Assembly: GCA_030920305.1 (NCBI GenBank)
Contig: JARLUB010000001.1
Location: forward strand, 1 to 64,000
Length of the DNA: 64,000 nt
From: Eubacteriales bacterium SKADARSKE-1
Lineage (GTDB): Bacteria; Bacillota; Clostridia; Oscillospirales; Acutalibacteraceae
Reading direction: 5' to 3'
Position 1 is the first letter of the stretch. Each line of letters starts with the position of its first letter. Shown piece by piece: positions 16,539 to 55,035 of this stretch. The position numbers and the translations under genes are program-made. The notes beneath the pieces are model-generated. The model searched no databases and had not been told where the DNA came from. It saw nothing but the letters and a program-made list of their open reading frames with translations.

Positions 16539-16712
16539 ATGGATAAAGACAAGAAAGGTCTTAATGAGGAACAATTAAATCAAGTTTTAGGTGGAATGGC
16601 AAATCCTATTTATACAGCTTATTTTAAAGATGGAGCACTTCGAAACCCTGAAAGTGGTAAGCCATTTAAAGATGATAAAGAAGCGTGGGAATATTTTAGA
16701 GCCCATAAATAA
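16539..16712 (+). CDS. Small peptide with double-glycine leader
   Basis: A 57-residue peptide beginning MDKDKKGLNEEQLNQVLGG, which fits the bacteriocin-type double-glycine leader (LxxxxLxxVxGG). Cleavage after GG would release a 38-residue core, starting MANPIYTAYF, rich in Lys/Asp and aromatics and ending EYFRAHK. AAAGGAGG precedes the ATG. The gene is monocistronic with its own promoter and a strong terminator. The core is not an obvious match to the array at 48813-50942, though both contain a Trp/Phe-rich segment (EAWEYF vs DWKWFKKQY). Function unknown; a secreted signal or bacteriocin-like peptide is inferred. Confidence 0.7.
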   Translation: MDKDKKGLNEEQLNQVLGGMANPIYTAYFKDGALRNPESGKPFKDDKEAWEYFRAHK

Positions 16713-46536: not shown

Positions 46537-48735
46537 ATGCAAAAAAGGACGATGCTTGAACTTATTGGTTCTGTTGAAAGAATTATTTTTAAAAATGAAC
46601 AAAATGGATACAGTGTTATAGAACTTATGGCAGAAACTGAAACCGTAACTGTTGTTGGAACTATGCCAAACATTAGTGTTGGAGAAAACTTAAAATTGAT
46701 TGGCAACTGGAAAAACCACCCTACTTTTGGTGAACAATTTAGCGCTGAAATATGTGAAGTATCTATGCCAACTTCAACTGTATCAATTTTAAAATATCTT
46801 TCATCTGGTGCAATAAAAGGCATTGGTCCATCTACTGCTACAAAGCTTGTAGAAACCTTTGCGGAAAACACTCTCGAAGTAATGGAAAAATCACCCGAAA
46901 GGCTTGCTCAAATTCCTGGAATAAGCAAATCTAAAGCTTTAAAAATAGCTGAAGAATTCACTAAATTATTTGGTATTAAAGATTTAATGGCTTATCTTGG
47001 CAAATACGGCATAACACCTGAAGAAACTGTTAAAATATTTAAAGTATATGGGATAAATTCAAAAGATCTTATAAGTTCTAATCCATACATACTTTGTGAC
47101 GAACCAATTAACATAGATTTTGATAAAGCTGACAAAATAGCTATTGAATCAAACACTGAAAACGATAATATTTGTAGGATTAGAGCGGGAATTATTTTCG
47201 TTTTGACCCACAATATGAATAATGGACACACTTGTCTTCCAAAAGATAGGTTAAACGAAGCTTGTACCAAATTTTTAGAAATAGATATAGAAAAGGTAAA
47301 CTCAGCGTTAACCCAGCTTTTAAACGAAGGAAATTTGCAATCCGATATTATTTCTGAGCGTGAATTTATTTTTTTAAACAAGATGTATATGAGTGAAACT
47401 TATATAGCAAGCAGATTAAATATGATAATAAAATTTACTGCTCAAAGAATAGACTCAATTGAAGATAAAATAATATCCATAGAAAAAGAACAAAACCTTT
47501 TATATGCTGATTTGCAAAAAGAAGCTATTAGAAAAGCTCTTCAAGAGGGCATATTGATATTAACCGGGGGGCCGGGCACTGGAAAAACTACTACGCTCAA
47601 TGCAATAATCAAAATTTTAGAAGCTAAGGGCGAAAAGGTATTTTTAGCAGCACCTACAGGCAGGGCTGCTAAGCGAATGTCTGAACTTACAAAAAAAGAA
47701 TCTAAAACCATCCACCGAATGCTAGAAGTTGCTTGGGACAATGAAGACAAACCTATATTCAAACGCAATGAAAAAAATCTATTAAAGTGCGATACCTTGA
47801 TTTTAGATGAGCTTTCAATGATTGATGTTACTTTATTTGAGGGCGTTTTAAAGGCTTTGCCACTTGGGTGCCGTCTTATAATGGTAGGCGACAGCAACCA
47901 ATTGCCATCAGTGGGTGCTGGAAATGTTTTAGATGATTTAATAAAATCTGAAATTTTACCCGTAGTTGAATTAAAAGAGATATTCCGGCAAGCTTCTACC
48001 AGCTTAATCGTTACTAACGCTCATAAAATAGTAAATGGAGAACTTCCTGACTTATCTATTAAGGACAATGATTTTTTCTTCCTGCAAACATCTCAGCCCG
48101 AAAATATAAGTGAAACAATAAAAGATTTGTGTAAAAACAGGTTACCTAACGCTTATGGCTATTCTCCTCTTTTTGACATACAAGTTATAGCTCCCGGTAG
48201 AAAAGGTCCTCTTGGCACTTTTAATTTAAATAAAATATTGCAAGACACTTTGAATCCTAAATCGTCTCAAAAGACTGAAATTATTGTAAATGGCAATGTC
48301 TTTCGTGTGGGTGACAAAGTTATGCAAATAAAAAATAATTACGATATACCATTTATAAAAGACGATACTAGTATGGGTGAAGGCATTTTTAACGGTGATA
48401 TTGGAATACTCACAGGAATAGATAATTCAAACTCTACTGTGAGTGTAAAGTTTGACGACAAGCTAGCCCATTATGATATGGAAACCATAACTGATTTGGA
48501 GCTAGCTTATGCAGTAACAGTACATAAAAGCCAAGGCAGTGAATTTTGCGCTGTAGTTATGCCCATGTATTATGGCGCACCACAACTTTATTATAGAAAT
48601 TTACTTTACACGGGAGTCACCCGCGCTAAAAACCTTCTAATAATGGTTGGTACTCCCTGGACAATTGCAAAAATGGTAGAAAACAATAAAAAGACCAGGC
48701 GTTACTCTGGACTTTGTGAATTCTTAAGAAAATAA
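46537..48735 (+). CDS. recD2: ATP-dependent RecD2-type DNA helicase
   Basis: SF1B 5'-to-3' helicase found in bacteria lacking RecBC partners and involved in repair. The 732-residue protein has an N-terminal OB-like part (GSVERIIFKNEQNGYSVIEL), HhH segments (GIGPSTATKLVETF, IPGISKSKALKIAEEF), Walker A ILTGGPGTGKTTTLNAI, motif II LDELSMIDV, and C-terminal AYAVTVHKSQGSEFCAV. ATG 46537 has no close binding site; AAAGGA before ATG 46552 is an alternative giving 5 fewer residues. Confidence 0.93.
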   Translation: MQKRTMLELIGSVERIIFKNEQNGYSVIELMAETETVTVVGTMPNISVGENLKLIGNWKNHPTFGEQFSAEICEVSMPTSTVSILKYLSSGAIKGIGPSTATKLVETFAENTLEVMEKSPERLAQIPGISKSKALKIAEEFTKLFGIKDLMAYLGKYGITPEETVKIFKVYGINSKDLISSNPYILCDEPINIDFDKADKIAIESNTENDNICRIRAGIIFVLTHNMNNGHTCLPKDRLNEACTKFLEIDIEKVNSALTQLLNEGNLQSDIISEREFIFLNKMYMSETYIASRLNMIIKFTAQRIDSIEDKIISIEKEQNLLYADLQKEAIRKALQEGILILTGGPGTGKTTTLNAIIKILEAKGEKVFLAAPTGRAAKRMSELTKKESKTIHRMLEVAWDNEDKPIFKRNEKNLLKCDTLILDELSMIDVTLFEGVLKALPLGCRLIMVGDSNQLPSVGAGNVLDDLIKSEILPVVELKEIFRQASTSLIVTNAHKIVNGELPDLSIKDNDFFFLQTSQPENISETIKDLCKNRLPNAYGYSPLFDIQVIAPGRKGPLGTFNLNKILQDTLNPKSSQKTEIIVNGNVFRVGDKVMQIKNNYDIPFIKDDTSMGEGIFNGDIGILTGIDNSNSTVSVKFDDKLAHYDMETITDLELAYAVTVHKSQGSEFCAVVMPMYYGAPQLYYRNLLYTGVTRAKNLLIMVGTPWTIAKMVENNKKTRRYSGLCEFLRK

Positions 48736-48761
48736 AACTTACTTTAGTTAACGTTCCAAGC

Positions 48762-48807
48762 AAACAATGCTCATGCGATTTATAAATCACGTGAGCATTG
48801 TTTTTTT
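48762..48807. terminator. Terminator between recD2 and the peptide array
   Basis: AAACAATGCTCA (48762-48773) pairs with TGAGCATTGTTT (48792-48803), with a further inner GATTTATAAATC palindrome, then T-run. It lies between convergent units and ends the peptide array transcript on the minus strand too. Confidence 0.85.
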
Positions 48808-48812
48808 AACCT

Positions 48813-49055
48813 TTAAAAATTACCATAGTTATAATATTTTTCTAAGTCTTGTAAACTATTAATTTTTTTTTCTATGTACTGCCTTTTAAACCATTTCCAA
48901 TCATATTCAACTGCGCCATAAAAATCATGGCCAAATTCTAGCCATCTTTTACGGTTTTTATCATCTCTCCCGCATAAAATATACGAACCATCACCCCCAC
49001 GCGATAAATCTCCACCTGAAACCATCTCAAGATCTTTGTCACTTAACTTTCTCAC
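48813..49055 (-). CDS. Double-glycine-leader peptide, array copy 1 (YNYGNF family)
   Basis: An 80-residue peptide with leader MRKLSDKDLEMVSGG and a 65-residue core of pattern R-G-DGSY...G.DD....F...F..A...DWKWFK.QY......SLQ.LEKYYNYGNF. GTG at 49055 is chosen, matching the starts of its relatives and preceded by AAAGGAGG; a longer reading from 49100 is artefactual. The core has one Cys (YILCGRDD), is rich in Asp, Lys and aromatics, and does not look like a typical lantibiotic. It is 31 bases downstream of copy 2 and probably cotranscribed. Function unknown. Confidence 0.8.
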   Translation of the reverse strand: MRKLSDKDLEMVSGGDLSRGGDGSYILCGRDDKNRKRWLEFGHDFYGAVEYDWKWFKRQYIEKKINSLQDLEKYYNYGNF

Positions 49056-49086
49056 TATTTGAGTATCCTCCTTTAAAATAGGTAAT

Positions 49087-49329
49087 TTAAAAATTTCCAT
49101 AATTATAGTACTTTTCTAGCTCTTGTAAGCTAAAGATTCCTCTTTCTTGGTATTGTTTTTCAAACCATTTCCAATCATACCCAATTGCCTCGTAAAAATC
49201 ATTACCAAATTCTATTCCCCGGTTACGATTTTTATCATCTCTCCCACATATAACATACGAACCATCACCTCTGCGAAACAAATCTCCTCCCAAAACCATC
49301 TCCAACTCTTTGTCATTTAACTTATTCAC
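49087..49329 (-). CDS. Double-glycine-leader peptide, array copy 2
   Basis: An 80-residue peptide, leader MNKLNDKELEMVLGG, core starting DLFRRGDGSYVICGRDD and ending LQELEKYYNYGNF. It is the closest relative of copy 1 (same CGRDDKNR, YDWKWF). GTG start preceded by GGGAGGATTCTCAAATA, nearly identical to the copy 1 leader, so the duplication included the ribosome binding site. The upstream sequence also resembles that of copy 3. Confidence 0.82.
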   Translation of the reverse strand: MNKLNDKELEMVLGGDLFRRGDGSYVICGRDDKNRNRGIEFGNDFYEAIGYDWKWFEKQYQERGIFSLQELEKYYNYGNF

Positions 49330-49447
49330 TATTTGAGAATCCTCCCTTAAGTAATAATGAGCAATTTATAAACCCACAATATAAAGATACTTGTACAATC
49401 GTTTTTTGTCTCGCGTTTTTTGTAGATAAACATTTATCTTGAAAAAA

Positions 49448-49476
49448 GCTGACCTCAAATAAATTATGAGATCAGC
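49448..49476 (-). terminator. Terminator after array copy 3
   Basis: GCTGACCTCA pairs with TGAGATCAGC around a 9-base loop; on the minus strand it is followed by TTTTTTC. It separates copy 3 from copies 2-1. Confidence 0.75.
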
Positions 49477-49533
49477 CTTTAAAATATTAATATTTTTTAA
49501 ACTAGGATAAAACCACTAAGTTTTTATTTATTG

Positions 49534-49776
49534 CTAAAAACATCCGTAATTGTAATACTCTTCAAGTTCCTGTAGACTAAAGATTCCCTTTTCGTTGTAC
49601 TGTTTTTTAAACCACTCCCAATCACACTCTAGTGCCAAATGAAACTTGTCACCAAAAATAAATGTTACATTATTCCCGTTATCATCTTTTCCTACTACAT
49701 TATATGAACCGTTCTTTCCTCGGCATATATATCCGCCTAAAATCTTTTCTAGTCCCTTATCATCTAACTTTTTCAC
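49534..49776 (-). CDS. Double-glycine-leader peptide, array copy 3
   Basis: An 80-residue peptide, leader MKKLDDKGLEKILGG, core YICRGKNGSYNVVGKDD... ending LQELEEYYNYGCF, with Cys in place of Asn in the terminal motif and another Cys in ECDWEWF. GTG start after GGAGG. It is the most divergent in the middle (NNVTFIFGDKFHLALE). It has its own terminator, so it is probably an independent unit. Confidence 0.8.
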   Translation of the reverse strand: MKKLDDKGLEKILGGYICRGKNGSYNVVGKDDNGNNVTFIFGDKFHLALECDWEWFKKQYNEKGIFSLQELEEYYNYGCF

Positions 49777-49889
49777 TATAAAAATCCTCCATTTTTCAAA
49801 TACTGATTAATTTGTAAACCCGTACTAAAAACATTTTATTGTTCAGATTCCTTTGACTTTCACTAGATTTATATTTTTCAAAAAATAAA

Positions 49890-49914
49890 CTGACACCTTT
49901 TTGTTTGATGCCAG
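49890..49914 (-). terminator. Terminator-like hairpin after array copy 4
   Basis: CTGACACC pairs with GATGCCAG (two wobbles); the minus strand continues TTTATTTTTTG. Confidence 0.5.
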
Positions 49915-49969
49915 CCCTCAAATATACCCACCTGTTTTATATAAAAACTATCTATTAATTATTTATTTG

Positions 49970-50218
49970 TTATTTAAAATTCCCATAATTGTAGTGCTTT
50001 TCAAGTTCTTGTACGCTAAAAATCCCACTTTTTTGATACTGTTTTTTAAACAGCATCCAGTCCCATTTAACTGCCCTAAAAAAATTATGCCCCATATCCA
50101 TGAACCTATCACACCCACCATCATCCACTCCAAATAATACATATGCACCATTTTCCCCGCGAAACAAATCTCCTCCTGCAACTAATTTTAATTCTTTATC
50201 ATTTAATATCTTTTTCAA
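49970..50218 (-). CDS. Double-glycine-leader peptide, array copy 4
   Basis: An 82-residue peptide, leader MKKILNDKELKLVAGG, core DLFRGENGAYVLFGVDDGG, KWDWMLFKKQY and VQELEKHYNYGNFK. TTG start after AAGGAG. The core resembles copy 6 (FFRAVKWDW vs FFKAAKWDW). Its upstream region is similar to that of copy 5 (ATATGATAAAAAT followed by TTCTTATTTAAGGAG), showing that the promoter was copied with the gene. Confidence 0.8.
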   Translation of the reverse strand: MKKILNDKELKLVAGGDLFRGENGAYVLFGVDDGGCDRFMDMGHNFFRAVKWDWMLFKKQYQKSGIFSVQELEKHYNYGNFK

Positions 50219-50305
50219 AGTAAAGTTCTCCTTAAATAAGAATTTCTTAAAGTATTATTTTTATCATATAAAAACAATCTATTGTTTGACTTTTATCTTT
50301 AGATT

Positions 50306-50551
50306 TTAAAAATTTCCATAATTATAATATTTACGAAGTTCCTCTAAAGTTTTAATATTTCTTTCTTTATACTGCTTTTTAAACCAACTCCAATCTTCAG
50401 CAACAGCTGAATCAAAATCTTTTTTTAAGTTCATTTGCATTTCAAAACCAACATCAGATTCTCCCACCACTATATATGATCCATCCTTGTCTCGTAATAA
50501 AAATCCACCTGTAACTAATTCTAACTCCTCGTCACTTAACATCCTTTTCAT
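50306..50551 (-). CDS. Double-glycine-leader peptide, array copy 5
   Basis: An 81-residue peptide, leader MKRMLSDEELELVTGG, core FLLRDKDGSYIVVGESD, EDWSWFKKQYKERNIK and LRKYYNYGNF. ATG start after AAGGAGG. A promoter-like TAGACA/TATGAT pair (spacer 17) lies upstream. It lacks the DD and the GNxF-type middle of the other copies (VGFEMQMNLKKDFD), while the DW.WFKKQY and YNYGNF parts are kept. Confidence 0.8.
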   Translation of the reverse strand: MKRMLSDEELELVTGGFLLRDKDGSYIVVGESDVGFEMQMNLKKDFDSAVAEDWSWFKKQYKERNIKTLEELRKYYNYGNF

Positions 50552-50678
50552 AACAAAATCCTCCTTAAATAAGAAAGTCTTAAAATATAATTTTTATCAT
50601 ATTAAAAAAATTTTTTATTGTCTAGTACCTTTTATTGGAAAAACTTATAATTATTACTGTATTCCATTAAAAAATCTA

Positions 50679-50942
50679 CTAGCTACTTTTTATTCGTAAA
50701 GTAAAATTTCCATAATTGTAGTATTGCTCAAGCTCTTGTAAAGTAGCAATCCCCATTGCTTGATATTGTTTTTTAAATAACTTCCAGTCCCATTTAGCCG
50801 CCTTAAAAAAATTATTTCCCATCTCCAGCAACCTATCACCTCCATTATCATCCATCCCGAATAATACATATTCACCATCTTGATCACGACATATGTATCC
50901 ACCTAAAACCAATTCCATATCCTCGCTACATAATTTTCTCAT
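50679..50942 (-). CDS. Double-glycine-leader peptide, array copy 6
   Basis: An 87-residue peptide, leader MRKLCSEDMELVLGG, core YICRDQDGEYVLFGMDDNGG, KWDWKLFKKQY, LQELEQYYNYGNF and a 7-residue tail TLRIKSS not found in the others. ATG start after AAGGGGG. First intact gene of the array, downstream of a consensus promoter at 51197-51225 and a decayed copy. Confidence 0.82.
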   Translation of the reverse strand: MRKLCSEDMELVLGGYICRDQDGEYVLFGMDDNGGDRLLEMGNNFFKAAKWDWKLFKKQYQAMGIATLQELEQYYNYGNFTLRIKSS

Positions 50943-51057: not shown

Positions 51058-51110
51058 TAAAATTCCCATTGCTATATTTTCTAGCATAAACCTGCCAACC
51101 CAAAAGTACC
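51058..51110 (-). pseudogene. Decayed seventh copy of the YNYGNF peptide gene
   Basis: On the minus strand CTAGAAAATATAGCAATGGG with ATTTTAA aligns by eye to the 3' end of functional copies (codons for LEKYYNYGNF and stop) with small gaps. Just upstream GTACTTTTGGGTTGGCAGG resembles the VLFGMDDNGG region. The reading frame is broken and the middle is missing. Confidence 0.45.
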
Positions 51111-51196
51111 TATAAATACCAAAACAAACAAAAATATGAGTGGGTCTCTAAAACCAATGATGTAAAGAATTAAAAATTCATCTAATTCTATTGTAA

Positions 51197-51225
51197 ATTT
51201 TAACATAAATAAATTGTTTTGTCAA
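51197..51225 (-). promoter_or_regulatory. Consensus promoter at the head of the peptide array
   Basis: On the minus strand TTGACA (51220-51225) and TAAAAT (51197-51202) with a 17-base spacer, reading toward the decayed copy and copy 6. Confidence 0.75.
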
Positions 51226-51570: not shown

Positions 51571-54500
51571 ATGAGTGGTTTTGTACATTTACATGTACAT
51601 AGCGAATATAGTTTATTAGATGGCGCAACTAAAATTAAAGGTCTTATAAAAAAAGTAAAAGAAATGGGTCAACCAGCAGTTGCCATAACTGATCATGGCG
51701 CTATGTATGGCATAATTGACTTTTACAAAGAAGCTATGAAAAATGGTATAAAGCCGATTATTGGATGCGAAGTTTATGTTGCCGCTAGATCTCTATTTGA
51801 TAAAGTAAGAGAGTATGATTCAGAACGATACCATTTAGTGCTGCTTTGCAAAAACAATAAAGGGTATGAAAATTTAATGAAAATTGTGTCTAAATCTTTT
51901 ATTGATGGGTTTTACACTAAGCCCCGAGTTGATGAAGCTCTGTTGCGTGAACATAGTGAGGGACTTATCGCACTATCAGCTTGTTTAGCGGGAGAGATCC
52001 CTAGGGCTATTTTAAAAAATGATTATAACCTAGCAAAAAGCACTGCTATTAAATATTGTAATATCTTTGGCAAAGATAACTTTTGCATTGAGCTGCAAGA
52101 CCATAACTTAAGCAATCAAAAAAAGGTAAACCCCGAATTGATTAAGCTATCAAAGGAAACTGGGATTCCGCTGGTTGCAACGAATGATTGCCACTATTTG
52201 TTGCAAGAAGATAGTCGCGCTCATGAGATTTTACTGTGCATCCAAACAAACCACACCATGGACGATGAAAACCGAATGGCCTTCGGAAGTGATCAGTTTT
52301 ATGTGAAATCTGAAAATGAAATGCGATCCCTTTTTCCACAATGCCCGGAAGCCTTTGACAATACAGTAGAAATTGCCAACAGGTGCAATGTTAACATAGA
52401 ATTTGGCAACACTAAATTGCCATCATTTGATGTTCCTGGCGGACAAGACCATTTTGAGTACTTTAAAGACCAGTGCTATGCTGGATTATATAAAAATTAT
52501 GGAGAAAATCCTGACAAAAAATTAATAGATCGCCTTGAATATGAGCTTTCTATGATCAACAAAATGGGTTACGTTGACTATTACTTAATAGTTAATGATT
52601 TTGTGCAGTACGCAAAAAGTGTGGGAATACCCGTTGGCCCAGGAAGGGGTTCAGGAGCTGGAAGCCTAGCAGCTTTTTGTATTGGAATAACTGGAATTGA
52701 CCCGATAAAATATAATCTTATTTTTGAACGTTTTTTAAACCCCGAACGAGTTAGCATGCCTGATTTTGATATTGATTTTTGTTATGTGCGACGGCAAGAG
52801 GTAATAGATTATGTTATTAGAAAATATGGCACTAACAGGGTTGCTCAAATTATAACCTTTGGAACAATGGCAGCAAGAGCAGCTATTAAAGATGTGGGTC
52901 GAGCTTTAAATGTTCCTTATGGAATAGTTGACTCTGCTGCAAAGCTTGTACCGTCTGAACTCAACGTTACTATTTCAAAGGCGCTAAATACTTCAAGTGA
53001 ATTAAAGGCAAAATATGAAACGAACCCTCAAATTCATGAAATAATAGATATGGCACAAAAGCTAGAGGGTATGCCCCGCCATGCTTCAACTCATGCAGCA
53101 GGTGTGGTTATAACAGACCGCCCTGTAAGTGATTATGTTCCACTAGCTAAAAACGATGAAGCTACTGTAACCCAATACACCATGACAACTTTAGAAGAAT
53201 TAGGCCTTTTAAAAATGGACTTTTTAGGTCTTCGAACTTTAACCGTTATCAGCGATACTGAAAAAATGGTTAGAAAATTGGATCCTAGTTTTGATATTGA
53301 TAAGATAGATACCGCCGACAGTGACGTTTTTAAAATGATCTCAAAAGGAGACACTCAGGGCGTTTTTCAGTTTGAATCTGCTGGTATGAAAAATGTATTA
53401 AAACAGCTAAAACCAAATTGCATTGAAGATTTAATTGCTGTTATATCTTTATATAGGCCAGGACCTATGAATTCTATTCCTAAATATATAGAAAATAGGC
53501 ACCACCCTGAAAAAATTAAATACGATCATGAAAGTCTTGCCAAAATATTGGATGTAACTTATGGATGTATAATTTATCAAGAACAAGTTATGCAAATTTT
53601 CAGGGATTTAGCTGGGTTTTCTTTAGGGCGAGCAGATATTGTAAGGCGAGCAATGTCGAAAAAGAAAAAAGATGTTATGGAACGCGAACATCAAATTTTT
53701 ATACATGGTCTTGTAAATGATTCTGGGGAAGTTGAAGTTGAAGGCTGTATTCGTCGTGGAATTGATGAAAAAACAGCCGCTAAAATTTATTCTGAAATGG
53801 AAAGCTTTACATTATATGCATTTCCAAAAGCCCATGCAGCTGCATATTCTTTAATTTCTTACAGAACTGCGTTTTTAAAGTGCCATTATAAAGGCGAATT
53901 TATGGCCGCACTTCTAACCAGTGTTCTTGATAACAGCGATAAAATATCTGAATATATTGCTGAATGCAATAATTTAGGTGTAAAAGTTTTGCCACCAAAT
54001 ATTAATGAAAGCCAAGAATCATTTATTGTTTCTAAAAAAAATATTTGTTTTGGGATTTTAGCTGTAAAGGGGCTTGGAAGAGGCGTTATAAAGTCAATTT
54101 TATTTGAAAGAGAAAACGGTAAGTTTCGGTCACTTTATGATTTTTGTAACCGCATGTGCTCAAAAGATATAAGCAAAAAGGCTATTGAAAATTTAATTAA
54201 AGCCGGTGCTTTTGATAATCTTTCTGCTAACAGGCATCAGATGCTAGTATCTGTGGACACTATGGTGGACTCAATAGAAGCTACCAAAAGAAATAACTTA
54301 GACGGACAAATAGGTTTTTTTGATATGGCCGAAAGCACATCACAATATGCCGAACCAAGATTGCCAGCAGTTGATGAGTTCCCTATTCTAGATTTGTTAA
54401 GGATGGAAAAAGACGTGACCGGTATGTATCTTTCAGGGCATCCTTTGGCACAATATAATAATCTAATAAAGCAGCAAAGTTGCGTTCAATTAGCCCATGT

Positions 54501-55035
54501 GCAAAAATGCCAAGATAGCCAAAAATTTATAGTTTTAGCAATTATATCTGATGTAAAATTAAAAACTACTAAAAATAATAGTTCAATGGCTTTTGTAAAA
54601 GTAGAAGATATGTCTGGTCAAATGGAATTAATAGTATTTCCAAAAGTTTTTGAAGAAAACTCTTATTTATTAAAAGATGGCAGTATAATTAAAATCTATG
54701 CCAGGGTTTCAAAAAAAGATGACTCTGAAGCTAAACTTATATGTGATAAAATTAGCAATGTTGAGGATGCTGATGTTGAGGTTGTGCCCACCAAAAAGCC
54801 TAAATTTGCACATGCTGGGCTTTATATAAAAGTTAAAAACAAAGATTGTGATGAATACAAAAAGGCTGAAAATATGATAAGCATTTTCGATGGTAATACA
54901 CCGGTTTATTTTTTCTTTGAAGAAAATAAAAAGCTTCTATTAGCGCCAAAAAAGTTTTGGGTTGATCCTGCAAACATATTAATTTTTGAACTTAAAAGAC
55001 AGTTGGGGGAGCAAAATGTTGTCTTAAAAAACTAA
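51571..55035 (+). CDS. dnaE: DNA polymerase III alpha subunit
   Basis: Replicative polymerase of the DnaE type, 1154 residues. The PHP domain opens with HLHVHSEYSLLDGATKIKGL, followed by the palm with PGRGSGAGSLAAFCIGITGI and catalytic MPDFDIDF, then FPKAHAAAYSLISYRTAFLK, HhH region and a C-terminal OB domain (MAFVKVEDMSGQMELIVFP). The PolC-type exonuclease domain is absent; Firmicutes usually have PolC as well. TTGGAGG precedes the ATG. Followed by pfkA after a hairpin. Confidence 0.96.
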   Translation: MSGFVHLHVHSEYSLLDGATKIKGLIKKVKEMGQPAVAITDHGAMYGIIDFYKEAMKNGIKPIIGCEVYVAARSLFDKVREYDSERYHLVLLCKNNKGYENLMKIVSKSFIDGFYTKPRVDEALLREHSEGLIALSACLAGEIPRAILKNDYNLAKSTAIKYCNIFGKDNFCIELQDHNLSNQKKVNPELIKLSKETGIPLVATNDCHYLLQEDSRAHEILLCIQTNHTMDDENRMAFGSDQFYVKSENEMRSLFPQCPEAFDNTVEIANRCNVNIEFGNTKLPSFDVPGGQDHFEYFKDQCYAGLYKNYGENPDKKLIDRLEYELSMINKMGYVDYYLIVNDFVQYAKSVGIPVGPGRGSGAGSLAAFCIGITGIDPIKYNLIFERFLNPERVSMPDFDIDFCYVRRQEVIDYVIRKYGTNRVAQIITFGTMAARAAIKDVGRALNVPYGIVDSAAKLVPSELNVTISKALNTSSELKAKYETNPQIHEIIDMAQKLEGMPRHASTHAAGVVITDRPVSDYVPLAKNDEATVTQYTMTTLEELGLLKMDFLGLRTLTVISDTEKMVRKLDPSFDIDKIDTADSDVFKMISKGDTQGVFQFESAGMKNVLKQLKPNCIEDLIAVISLYRPGPMNSIPKYIENRHHPEKIKYDHESLAKILDVTYGCIIYQEQVMQIFRDLAGFSLGRADIVRRAMSKKKKDVMEREHQIFIHGLVNDSGEVEVEGCIRRGIDEKTAAKIYSEMESFTLYAFPKAHAAAYSLISYRTAFLKCHYKGEFMAALLTSVLDNSDKISEYIAECNNLGVKVLPPNINESQESFIVSKKNICFGILAVKGLGRGVIKSILFERENGKFRSLYDFCNRMCSKDISKKAIENLIKAGAFDNLSANRHQMLVSVDTMVDSIEATKRNNLDGQIGFFDMAESTSQYAEPRLPAVDEFPILDLLRMEKDVTGMYLSGHPLAQYNNLIKQQSCVQLAHVQKCQDSQKFIVLAIISDVKLKTTKNNSSMAFVKVEDMSGQMELIVFPKVFEENSYLLKDGSIIKIYARVSKKDDSEAKLICDKISNVEDADVEVVPTKKPKFAHAGLYIKVKNKDCDEYKKAENMISIFDGNTPVYFFFEENKKLLLAPKKFWVDPANILIFELKRQLGEQNVVLKN

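What the first reader, a model, noticed from the sequence alone, without database searches (positions are those of the whole stretch)
48813..50942. Tandem array of six double-glycine-leader peptides with a conserved YNYGNF core
Six leftward genes code for 80-87-residue peptides. Each starts with a 15-16-residue leader of pattern LxDKELExVxGG and has a core with R..(D/N)G.Y...G..D, DW.WFKKQY and LQELEKYYNYGNF. The leader fits bacteriocin-type double-glycine signals (established class), cut by peptidase-containing ABC transporters. The core is more conserved than typical bacteriocin cores, is not Cys-rich and is unknown to me. Several copies have their own promoters and terminators. No transporter, modification enzyme or immunity gene lies nearby. 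A family of exported signals, toxins or colonisation peptides is possible.
Basis: partly seen in the sequence, partly recalled or inferred. Interest (0 to 1): 0.88.

Follow-up and report, generated by a model that had tools for sequence, protein, structure and literature searches.

The report
Seven double-glycine-leader mini-protein genes
A bacterium with a small genome carries six side-by-side genes (and a seventh elsewhere) for a new family of short proteins that bear an export-and-cut tag and are predicted to fold into a compact domain, so they are probably delivered outside the cell; what they do there is not known.

Summary
In detail: six leftward genes at 48813-50942 encode 80-87-residue precursors, 46-51% identical to copy 5, with 15-16-residue double-glycine leaders. 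A seventh copy lies on another contig. All seven leaders carry L(-12), L/M/I(-7), V/I(-4) and GG, residues read by C39 peptidase transporters. The genome holds two such transporters, both NHLM-type (TIGR03796 over cut-off). The C17 peptidase is closest to LahT among solved structures (7.5e-49), keeps Cys-His-Asp, and no GG precursor was found in the 20 kb around it. The core shows purifying selection and, predicted without the leader, a compact three-strand, two-helix fold starting at GG (pLDDT 90.9). It matches no family or solved fold and was found in no other searched genome. In 22 of 80 NHLM-transporter loci I found short-leader GG genes (45; five controls 0-1); of 47 scanned, three carry CW_7 and one SH3_3 wall-type domains over cut-off. 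Best reading: PCAT-exported folded mini-proteins acting at or outside the surface. Bacteriocin and pheromone readings are weakened (hydrophilic core, no recognised immunity gene, no LytTR). Cleavage, export and function are untested.

The parts
48813..49055 (-). copy 1, GTG start, 80 aa; leader 49011-49055, core 48816-49010
49087..49329 (-). copy 2, GTG start, 80 aa; leader 49285-49329, core 49090-49284; its core is the chain folded alone by AlphaFold2 (pLDDT 90.9)
49534..49776 (-). copy 3, GTG start, 80 aa (YNYGCF, three Cys in the core); leader 49732-49776
49970..50218 (-). copy 4, TTG start, 82 aa; leader 50171-50218
50306..50551 (-). copy 5, ATG start, 81 aa; leader 50504-50551
50679..50942 (-). 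copy 6, ATG start, 87 aa; leader 50898-50942
51197..51225 (-). sigma-70-type promoter match TTGACA-17-TAAAAT ahead of copy 6
   Evidence: 11 of 12 matches
49876..49926 (-). terminator-like hairpin plus T run after copy 4
   Evidence: -12.3 kcal/mol, z -2.7
49438..49482 (-). terminator-like hairpin plus T run after copy 3
   Evidence: -18.8 kcal/mol, z -6.9
48748..48800 (.). hairpin between copy 1 and the convergent recD2 gene, possible shared terminator
   Evidence: -18.5 kcal/mol, z -4.1, folded on the - strand
16539..16712 (+). another, unrelated GG-leader gene in the window (57 aa, 19-residue leader with L-12, L-7, V-4, GG); shares the leader type only

Best explanation
The array encodes one orphan family of small exported proteins. 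SHOWN by sequence: six tandem paralogs plus one dispersed paralog, each a 15-16-residue leader ending in GG with the C39-recognition residues, joined to a 65-72-residue conserved core. PREDICTED: the core alone folds as a compact domain of three strands and two helices that begins directly after GG. INFERRED: the precursor is recognised through its leader by an NHLM-type peptidase-containing ABC transporter encoded elsewhere in the genome (most likely the C17 operon, which has no precursor beside it; possibly the C19 one, or both), cut after GG, exported unfolded or partly folded, and folds outside as an unmodified mini-protein at the surface or in the medium, a delivery route like that proposed for MAM of Faecalibacterium. 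Several paralogs in about three transcription units suggest dose or variant diversity. The target is unknown; an envelope role is a guess by analogy with wall-binding cargo found beside a few other NHLM transporters.
For: L(-12) and GG invariant, -7 L/M/I, -4 V/I in 7 of 7 leaders. In LahT150 the 13 residues before the cut suffice and V-4, L-7, L-12 are the contacts (PMC6363468, passages); PCAT1 uses L-7 and L-12 alike (PMC6959990, passages). Two C39 ABC transporters in the genome, both NHLM_micro_ABC1 over cut-off; the C17 peptidase is nearest LahT and keeps Cys19, His92, Asp108. No GG precursor in the 20 kb read around it, nor in the 22 kb around the 70%-identical relative L071. Short-leader GG genes lie near NHLM transporters in 22 of 80 loci, 45 genes, against 0, 0, 0, 1 and 1 for five control motifs. 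Core alone: pLDDT 90.9, pTM 0.73 (five models 76.0-90.9). Core dN < dS in 18 of 18 computable pairs. I judge 34 of 63 leader-pattern matches in the genome to be GG precursors, control pattern 25 matches.
Against: No transporter in the window; which of the two PCATs would act is not decided. The -15 hydrophobic position is met in only 4 of 7. No leader family reaches its cut-off: TIGR01847 14.3 against 15.7 bits (copy 4), NF038167 16.0 against 32 (copy 5). In the C17 operon only the C39 gene passes its NHLM cut-off; the second ABC gene is just under (705.0 against 709.4) and the HlyD-like gene well under (102.4 against 156.2). The relative's genome G457, with the same lone operon, showed two short- and five long-leader precursors in the 30 of 33 loci read, so 'lone transporter with dispersed short-leader genes' is not shown to be general. 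In the full-length model the core scores 83-85 over residues 21-60, so part of the rise to 90.9 reflects leaving out the floppy leader. The fold rests on seven sequences of one genome. GTG, TTG and ATT starts may mean low translation of some copies. No expression, cleavage or secretion data.
Confidence: 0.6

Rival explanations
1. Class II bacteriocins: the cores kill neighbours after export, and the copies are variants with different targets.
For: Bacteriocin-type leader, several paralogs, C39 transporters. Small hydrophobic frames of unknown status exist around the array, for example 51081-51206, so an unrecognised immunity peptide cannot be excluded.
Against: Cores are hydrophilic (GRAVY -0.6 to -1.2) with pI 4.9-8.0 and predicted folded; change is purifying; ten small frames between recD2 and dnaE match no Pfam family over cut-off; no bacteriocin family over cut-off for the six.
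Confidence: 0.12
2. Peptide pheromones (ComC or Blp type) sensed by a histidine kinase.
For: GG leader and C39 export are used by such pheromones; small size.
Against: No LytTR response regulator in the genome (the search rings in 5 of 14 control genomes); a folded core of 65-72 residues is far larger than such pheromones (general knowledge); seven divergent copies. Other sensing systems were not searched.
Confidence: 0.06
3. RiPP precursors: the core is modified before export.
For: NHLM transporters, Nif11 and NHLP precursors and radical SAM/SPASM genes exist in this genome.
Against: One SPASM gene sits beside its own NHLP precursor on C17 and the other at C1:183109, neither in the window; no LanC; cores have 0-3 Cys and are predicted to fold unmodified. 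YcaO and other modification enzymes were not searched.
Confidence: 0.07
4. Cytosolic nucleic-acid-binding proteins (lambda integrase N-domain, AP2 or WGR look) in which GG is incidental.
Confidence: 0.08

Closest known systems
CtA, 90-residue substrate of PCAT1 (Clostridium thermocellum)
   Same: GG leader, L(-7), L(-12), cargo of residues 25-90, C39 ABC transporter (PMC6959990, passages)
   Different: No sequence relation seen: the profile of our seven lists only 4fz4 among PDB chains up to E 10; CtA cargo was seen unstructured in the transporter; one protein, not a paralog array
MAM of Faecalibacterium duncaniae
   Same: GG leader and proposed PCAT export of a folded small protein to the envelope (PMC12184118, abstract and passages)
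   Different: MAM has a core of three helices and lies next to its PCAT; ours has three strands and two helices and no adjacent PCAT. MAM sequence not compared here
LahT / NHLM_micro_ABC1 (TIGR03796) systems with Nif11 and NHLP precursors
   Same: Transporter type present in this genome; same leader contacts
   Different: Their described precursors have long leaders (here 57-77 residues in the C19 set); ours have 15-16 and no maturase beside them
Class II bacteriocin leaders (TIGR01847, PF10439, ComC)
   Same: Short GG leader
   Different: Below the curated cut-off; hydrophilic, predicted-folded core; no recognised immunity gene

Membership tests
C39/PCAT double-glycine substrates | short N-terminal leader ending in GG | tested here: met
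   7 of 7
C39/PCAT double-glycine substrates | hydrophobic residues at -4, -7, -12 | tested here: met
   7 of 7; the further position -15 in only 4 of 7
C39/PCAT double-glycine substrates | C39 peptidase transporter with catalytic residues in the genome | tested here: met
   two, C17 and C19
C39/PCAT double-glycine substrates | cleavage after GG and export | not testable with these tools
   needs peptidase assay or peptidomics
Class II bacteriocin (TIGR01847, PF10439) | score over the curated cut-off | tested here: not met
   TIGR01847 14.3 against 15.7 bits for copy 4 only; PF10439 not listed for copies 1-6
Class II bacteriocin (TIGR01847, PF10439) | cationic or amphipathic unmodified core | tested here: not met
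   pI 4.9-8.0, GRAVY -0.6 to -1.2; amphipathicity as such not computed
Class II bacteriocin (TIGR01847, PF10439) | adjacent immunity gene | tested here: inconclusive
   ten small frames between recD2 and dnaE match no Pfam family over cut-off, but immunity peptides are diverse and one may be unrecognised
Nif11 / NHLP RiPP precursors (TIGR03798, TIGR03793) | long Nif11 or NHLP leader | tested here: not met
   15-16-residue leaders, no such family match for copies 1-6
ComC/Blp-type pheromone system | LytTR response regulator | tested here: not met
   none in own genome at E <= 0.01
AP2/integrase-N type domain | same fold with significant structural match | tested here: inconclusive

The most novel reading that the evidence does not exclude
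NHLM-type transporters of Clostridia, named as bacteriocin or RiPP exporters, are also a general secretion route for small unmodified folded domains carried on short GG leaders: wall-binding CW_7 and SH3 domains, zinc-ribbon-like proteins and orphan folds such as this three-strand, two-helix core. The seven paralogs would then be a lineage-specific coat or surface-interaction set served by a transporter encoded far away.
Probability: 0.3. Interest if true: 0.7.

Novelty: new variant of a known kind. Interest (0 to 1): 0.5.

Why it matters
Double-glycine leaders are usually read as the mark of bacteriocins, pheromones or modified peptides. A paralog family whose core is a predicted compact domain, with no recognised immunity or modification gene beside it and its likely transporter elsewhere, points to another use of the C39 route: export of small folded proteins, as proposed for MAM. 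Gene-cluster mining that looks only beside transporters would miss such arrays. A peptidase assay with the two C39 domains would test it directly.

Tried and rejected

Wider family: the profile found no member in 98 relatives and none in 393 order genomes at E <= 0.001. In 398 further family genomes at E <= 0.01 it gave five weak hits, about what chance gives at that limit: three are GG-leader genes matched through the leader, one lies inside a 337-residue frame, one has four stops. The three sets overlap. None in genome contigs or viral contigs, whose first step needs near-exact peptide patterns so that diverged members can be missed; none in plasmids or phages with copy 2 as query. I first thought that the GG genes of relatives G353, G167 and G219 and the C12 pair shared the core; profile comparison shows a shared leader (probability 89% for the G353/G167 set, 82% for G219, 22% for C12) but no core match (below 2% for each with ours), so I dropped that idea.

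C39 domains reach the cut-off in 27 of 149 relatives, own genome included; this was not taken further. A leader-pattern count across the same 149 (own 9 against control 1) was not used: many relatives exceed the control too, with or without C39, so it does not discriminate. The -4 pocket residue (V128 in C17, I133 in C19) does not decide between the transporters.

For alignment A6 I used 44 of the 45 short-leader genes (one dropped for unknown residues) plus three from the looser scan. Of these 47, three match CW_7, three ComC and three Bacteriocin_IIc at E <= 0.01; ten were looked at singly: three CW_7 and one SH3_3 over cut-off, one zinc-ribbon type below cut-off, five with nothing at E <= 0.001. 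How many of the 47 match nothing is not told.

Full report
WHAT IS THERE. Six leftward ORFs lie between recD2 (46537-48735, +; TIGR01448 over cut-off) and dnaE (51571-55035, +; TIGR00594 over cut-off). They encode 80, 80, 80, 82, 81 and 87 residues with starts GTG, GTG, GTG, TTG, ATG, ATG. Alignment gives 22 invariant columns and 46-51% identity to copy 5. A search of the own genome (1.38 Mb, 23 contigs, 98% complete; unnamed) finds the six and a seventh, alone between a uracil-DNA glycosylase and a trpS gene on contig C17. That copy has no ATG, GTG or TTG before its leader; ATT after a ribosome site is the likely start (sequence reading).

REAL GENES. Among 21 pairs of the seven copies, core dS could be computed in 18, and dN < dS in all 18. 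The two least diverged pairs are 1 v 2 (0.155 / 1.21) and 4 v 6 (0.205 / 0.77); the rest are more diverged (dS 0.93 and above) and less reliable. Hairpins with T runs after copies 4 and 3, and a hairpin after copy 1, would split the array into 6-5-4, 3 and 2-1; the consensus terminator scan does not list them. One strong promoter match lies ahead of copy 6. Copies 1 and 2, and 4 and 5, share upstream DNA (by eye), so duplications seem to have taken the ribosome-site region along.

THE LEADER. Counting from the GG, all seven leaders have L at -12, L/M/I at -7, V/I at -4 and GG. For LahT150, a peptide with the last 13 leader residues is cleaved, V-4, L-7 and L-12 fill the groove, and short leaders are also cut (PMC6363468, passages read). 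In PCAT1, L-7 and L-12 form the hydrophobic knot and -4 tunes specificity (PMC6959990, passages). In pneumococcus the signal sequence directs a GG peptide to its transporter, though one cargo was not accepted by two transporters even with their signal (PMC7018657, abstract and passages). The leader thus has what these C39 domains need; the -15 hydrophobic position is met in only 4 of 7, and no leader family reaches its cut-off.

THE TRANSPORTER. Pfam C39 finds two full C39 ABC transporters in the genome and one sub-threshold match. Both are NHLM_micro_ABC1 over cut-off. The C19 system has fourteen long-leader GG precursors and one short-leader one beside it. The C17 system consists of a short HlyD-like gene (below its cut-off), the C39 ABC gene and a second ABC gene (705.0 against 709.4 bits), with a SpoIIAA/SpoIIAB-like pair upstream (names of that pair by eye), and no GG precursor in the 20 kb read, even with a relaxed motif. 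Its peptidase domain matches LahT first (7.5e-49), then PCAT1 and ComA, with Cys19, His92 and Asp108 kept. Its closest named relative, L071 (70% identical, an uncultured Clostridia bacterium), has the same lone operon; in that genome two short- and five long-leader precursors were seen in the 30 of 33 pattern loci read.

DO NHLM TRANSPORTERS GO WITH SHORT LEADERS? I scanned the best 80 loci of the transporter search (of 586 confirmed, itself a capped list). Same-strand GG genes with a ribosome site and leader of at most 30 residues, from 6 kb before to 8 kb after the transporter gene, occur in 22 of 80 loci (45 genes); longer leaders in 26 of 80 (57 genes); either in 37 of 80. Antisense or farther off there were 1 and 5. 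Five control motifs gave 0, 0, 0, 1 and 1 short-leader and 0, 0, 0, 4 and 2 long-leader genes. Many loci are cut by contig ends. Of 47 such proteins scanned, three carry CW_7 cell-wall-binding repeats and one an SH3_3 domain over cut-off; others have CxxC pairs resembling zinc ribbons, the one checked singly being below cut-off. This was not part of the finding, but it shows that NHLM transporters keep company with short-leader genes, some for known small domains. That those are exported unmodified is inference.

THE OWN GENOME'S SET. A leader pattern gives 63 matches against 25 for the reversed control. By reading frame, ribosome site and length I judge 34 to be precursors: the seven, nine other short-leader genes (one in the window at 16539-16712) and eighteen long-leader ones (my judgement). 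The pattern misses some, for example one of the fourteen of C19. The seven are one family among many in this genome.

HOW FAR IT REACHES. Only the own genome holds the family among 99, 399 and 394 overlapping genomes of family and order, and none was found in genome contigs, viral contigs, plasmids or phages. Three of the five weak hits in relatives proved to be GG-leader genes with unrelated cores. The family looks lineage-specific, within the limits of these searches; metagenomes could not be scanned.

MECHANISM. Shown: gene family, leader signature, transporters present. Predicted: folded core. Inferred: cleavage by an NHLM C39 domain, export, extracellular folding. Export as an unmodified mini-protein is favoured because no LanC was found, the two SPASM genes lie outside the window and one sits with its own NHLP precursor, and the cores hold 0-3 Cys; YcaO was not searched. 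A microcin V type I system exports small proteins largely regardless of cargo chemistry (PMC10231218, abstract), so a foldable cargo is no obstacle in principle. The nearest functional analogue is MAM, proposed to be cut and exported by a PCAT to the envelope (PMC12184118, abstract and passages); its envelope location was measured, its processing rests mainly on modelling. A bacteriocin role is weakened by core chemistry and lack of a recognised immunity gene; a ComC-type pheromone role by absence of LytTR.

NOVELTY. The leader and route are known; NHLP and Nif11 families with TIGR03794, 03796 and 03797 were described in 2010 (PMC2887384, passages). The core family is new to the libraries searched. 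In paper searches for double-glycine with Nif11, NHLP, CW_7, zinc ribbon or PCAT terms none of the papers listed (8 to 20 per search, titles and starts of abstracts) appeared to describe these peptides or CW_7 domains on GG leaders; the library holds open-licence papers only.

Noticed in passing
window 16539-16712 (+): Another GG-leader gene, 57 aa, 19-residue leader with L-12, L-7, V-4, GG and a strong ribosome site, next to an 8-oxoguanine glycosylase-like gene (match below cut-off); no NCBIfam match.
   Followed up: partly
L019 877-11574 (own genome C19): NHLM system (C39 ABC, second ABC and HlyD genes all over cut-off) with fourteen long-leader GG precursors, several with glycine/alanine-rich repetitive cores, and one short-leader precursor.
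   Followed up: partly
L057 593-2296 (own genome C17): NHLP-leader precursor (TIGR03793, 40.5 against 50.9 bits) with a two-Cys core beside a radical SAM/SPASM gene resembling nif11-class maturases (below cut-off); probable small RiPP cluster without its own transporter in the 4 kb read.
   Followed up: partly
L115 7802-8596, L138 4521-4856, L137 1055-1357: Short GG leaders fused to CW_7 cell-wall-binding repeats or an SH3_3 domain, 0.8-2.8 kb from an NHLM C39 transporter gene: small wall-binding-type proteins on a bacteriocin-type export tag.
   Followed up: partly
L136 10107-11669, L072 14911-16951, L098 9092-11750: Tandem short-leader GG arrays beside NHLM transporters, each with its own look of core.
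   Followed up: no
L068 1334-1920 (own genome C12): Tandem pair of short-leader GG genes next to a gene that looks like tsf (by eye); cores show no relation to the array in profile comparison.
   Followed up: partly
L008 8948-9205 (own genome C17): Seventh copy seems to use ATT as start codon.
   Followed up: partly
window 51081-51206 (-): A 41-residue hydrophobic frame overlapping the strong promoter match ahead of the array; no Pfam match; probably not a gene, as its ATG lies upstream of the -10 hexamer.
   Followed up: partly
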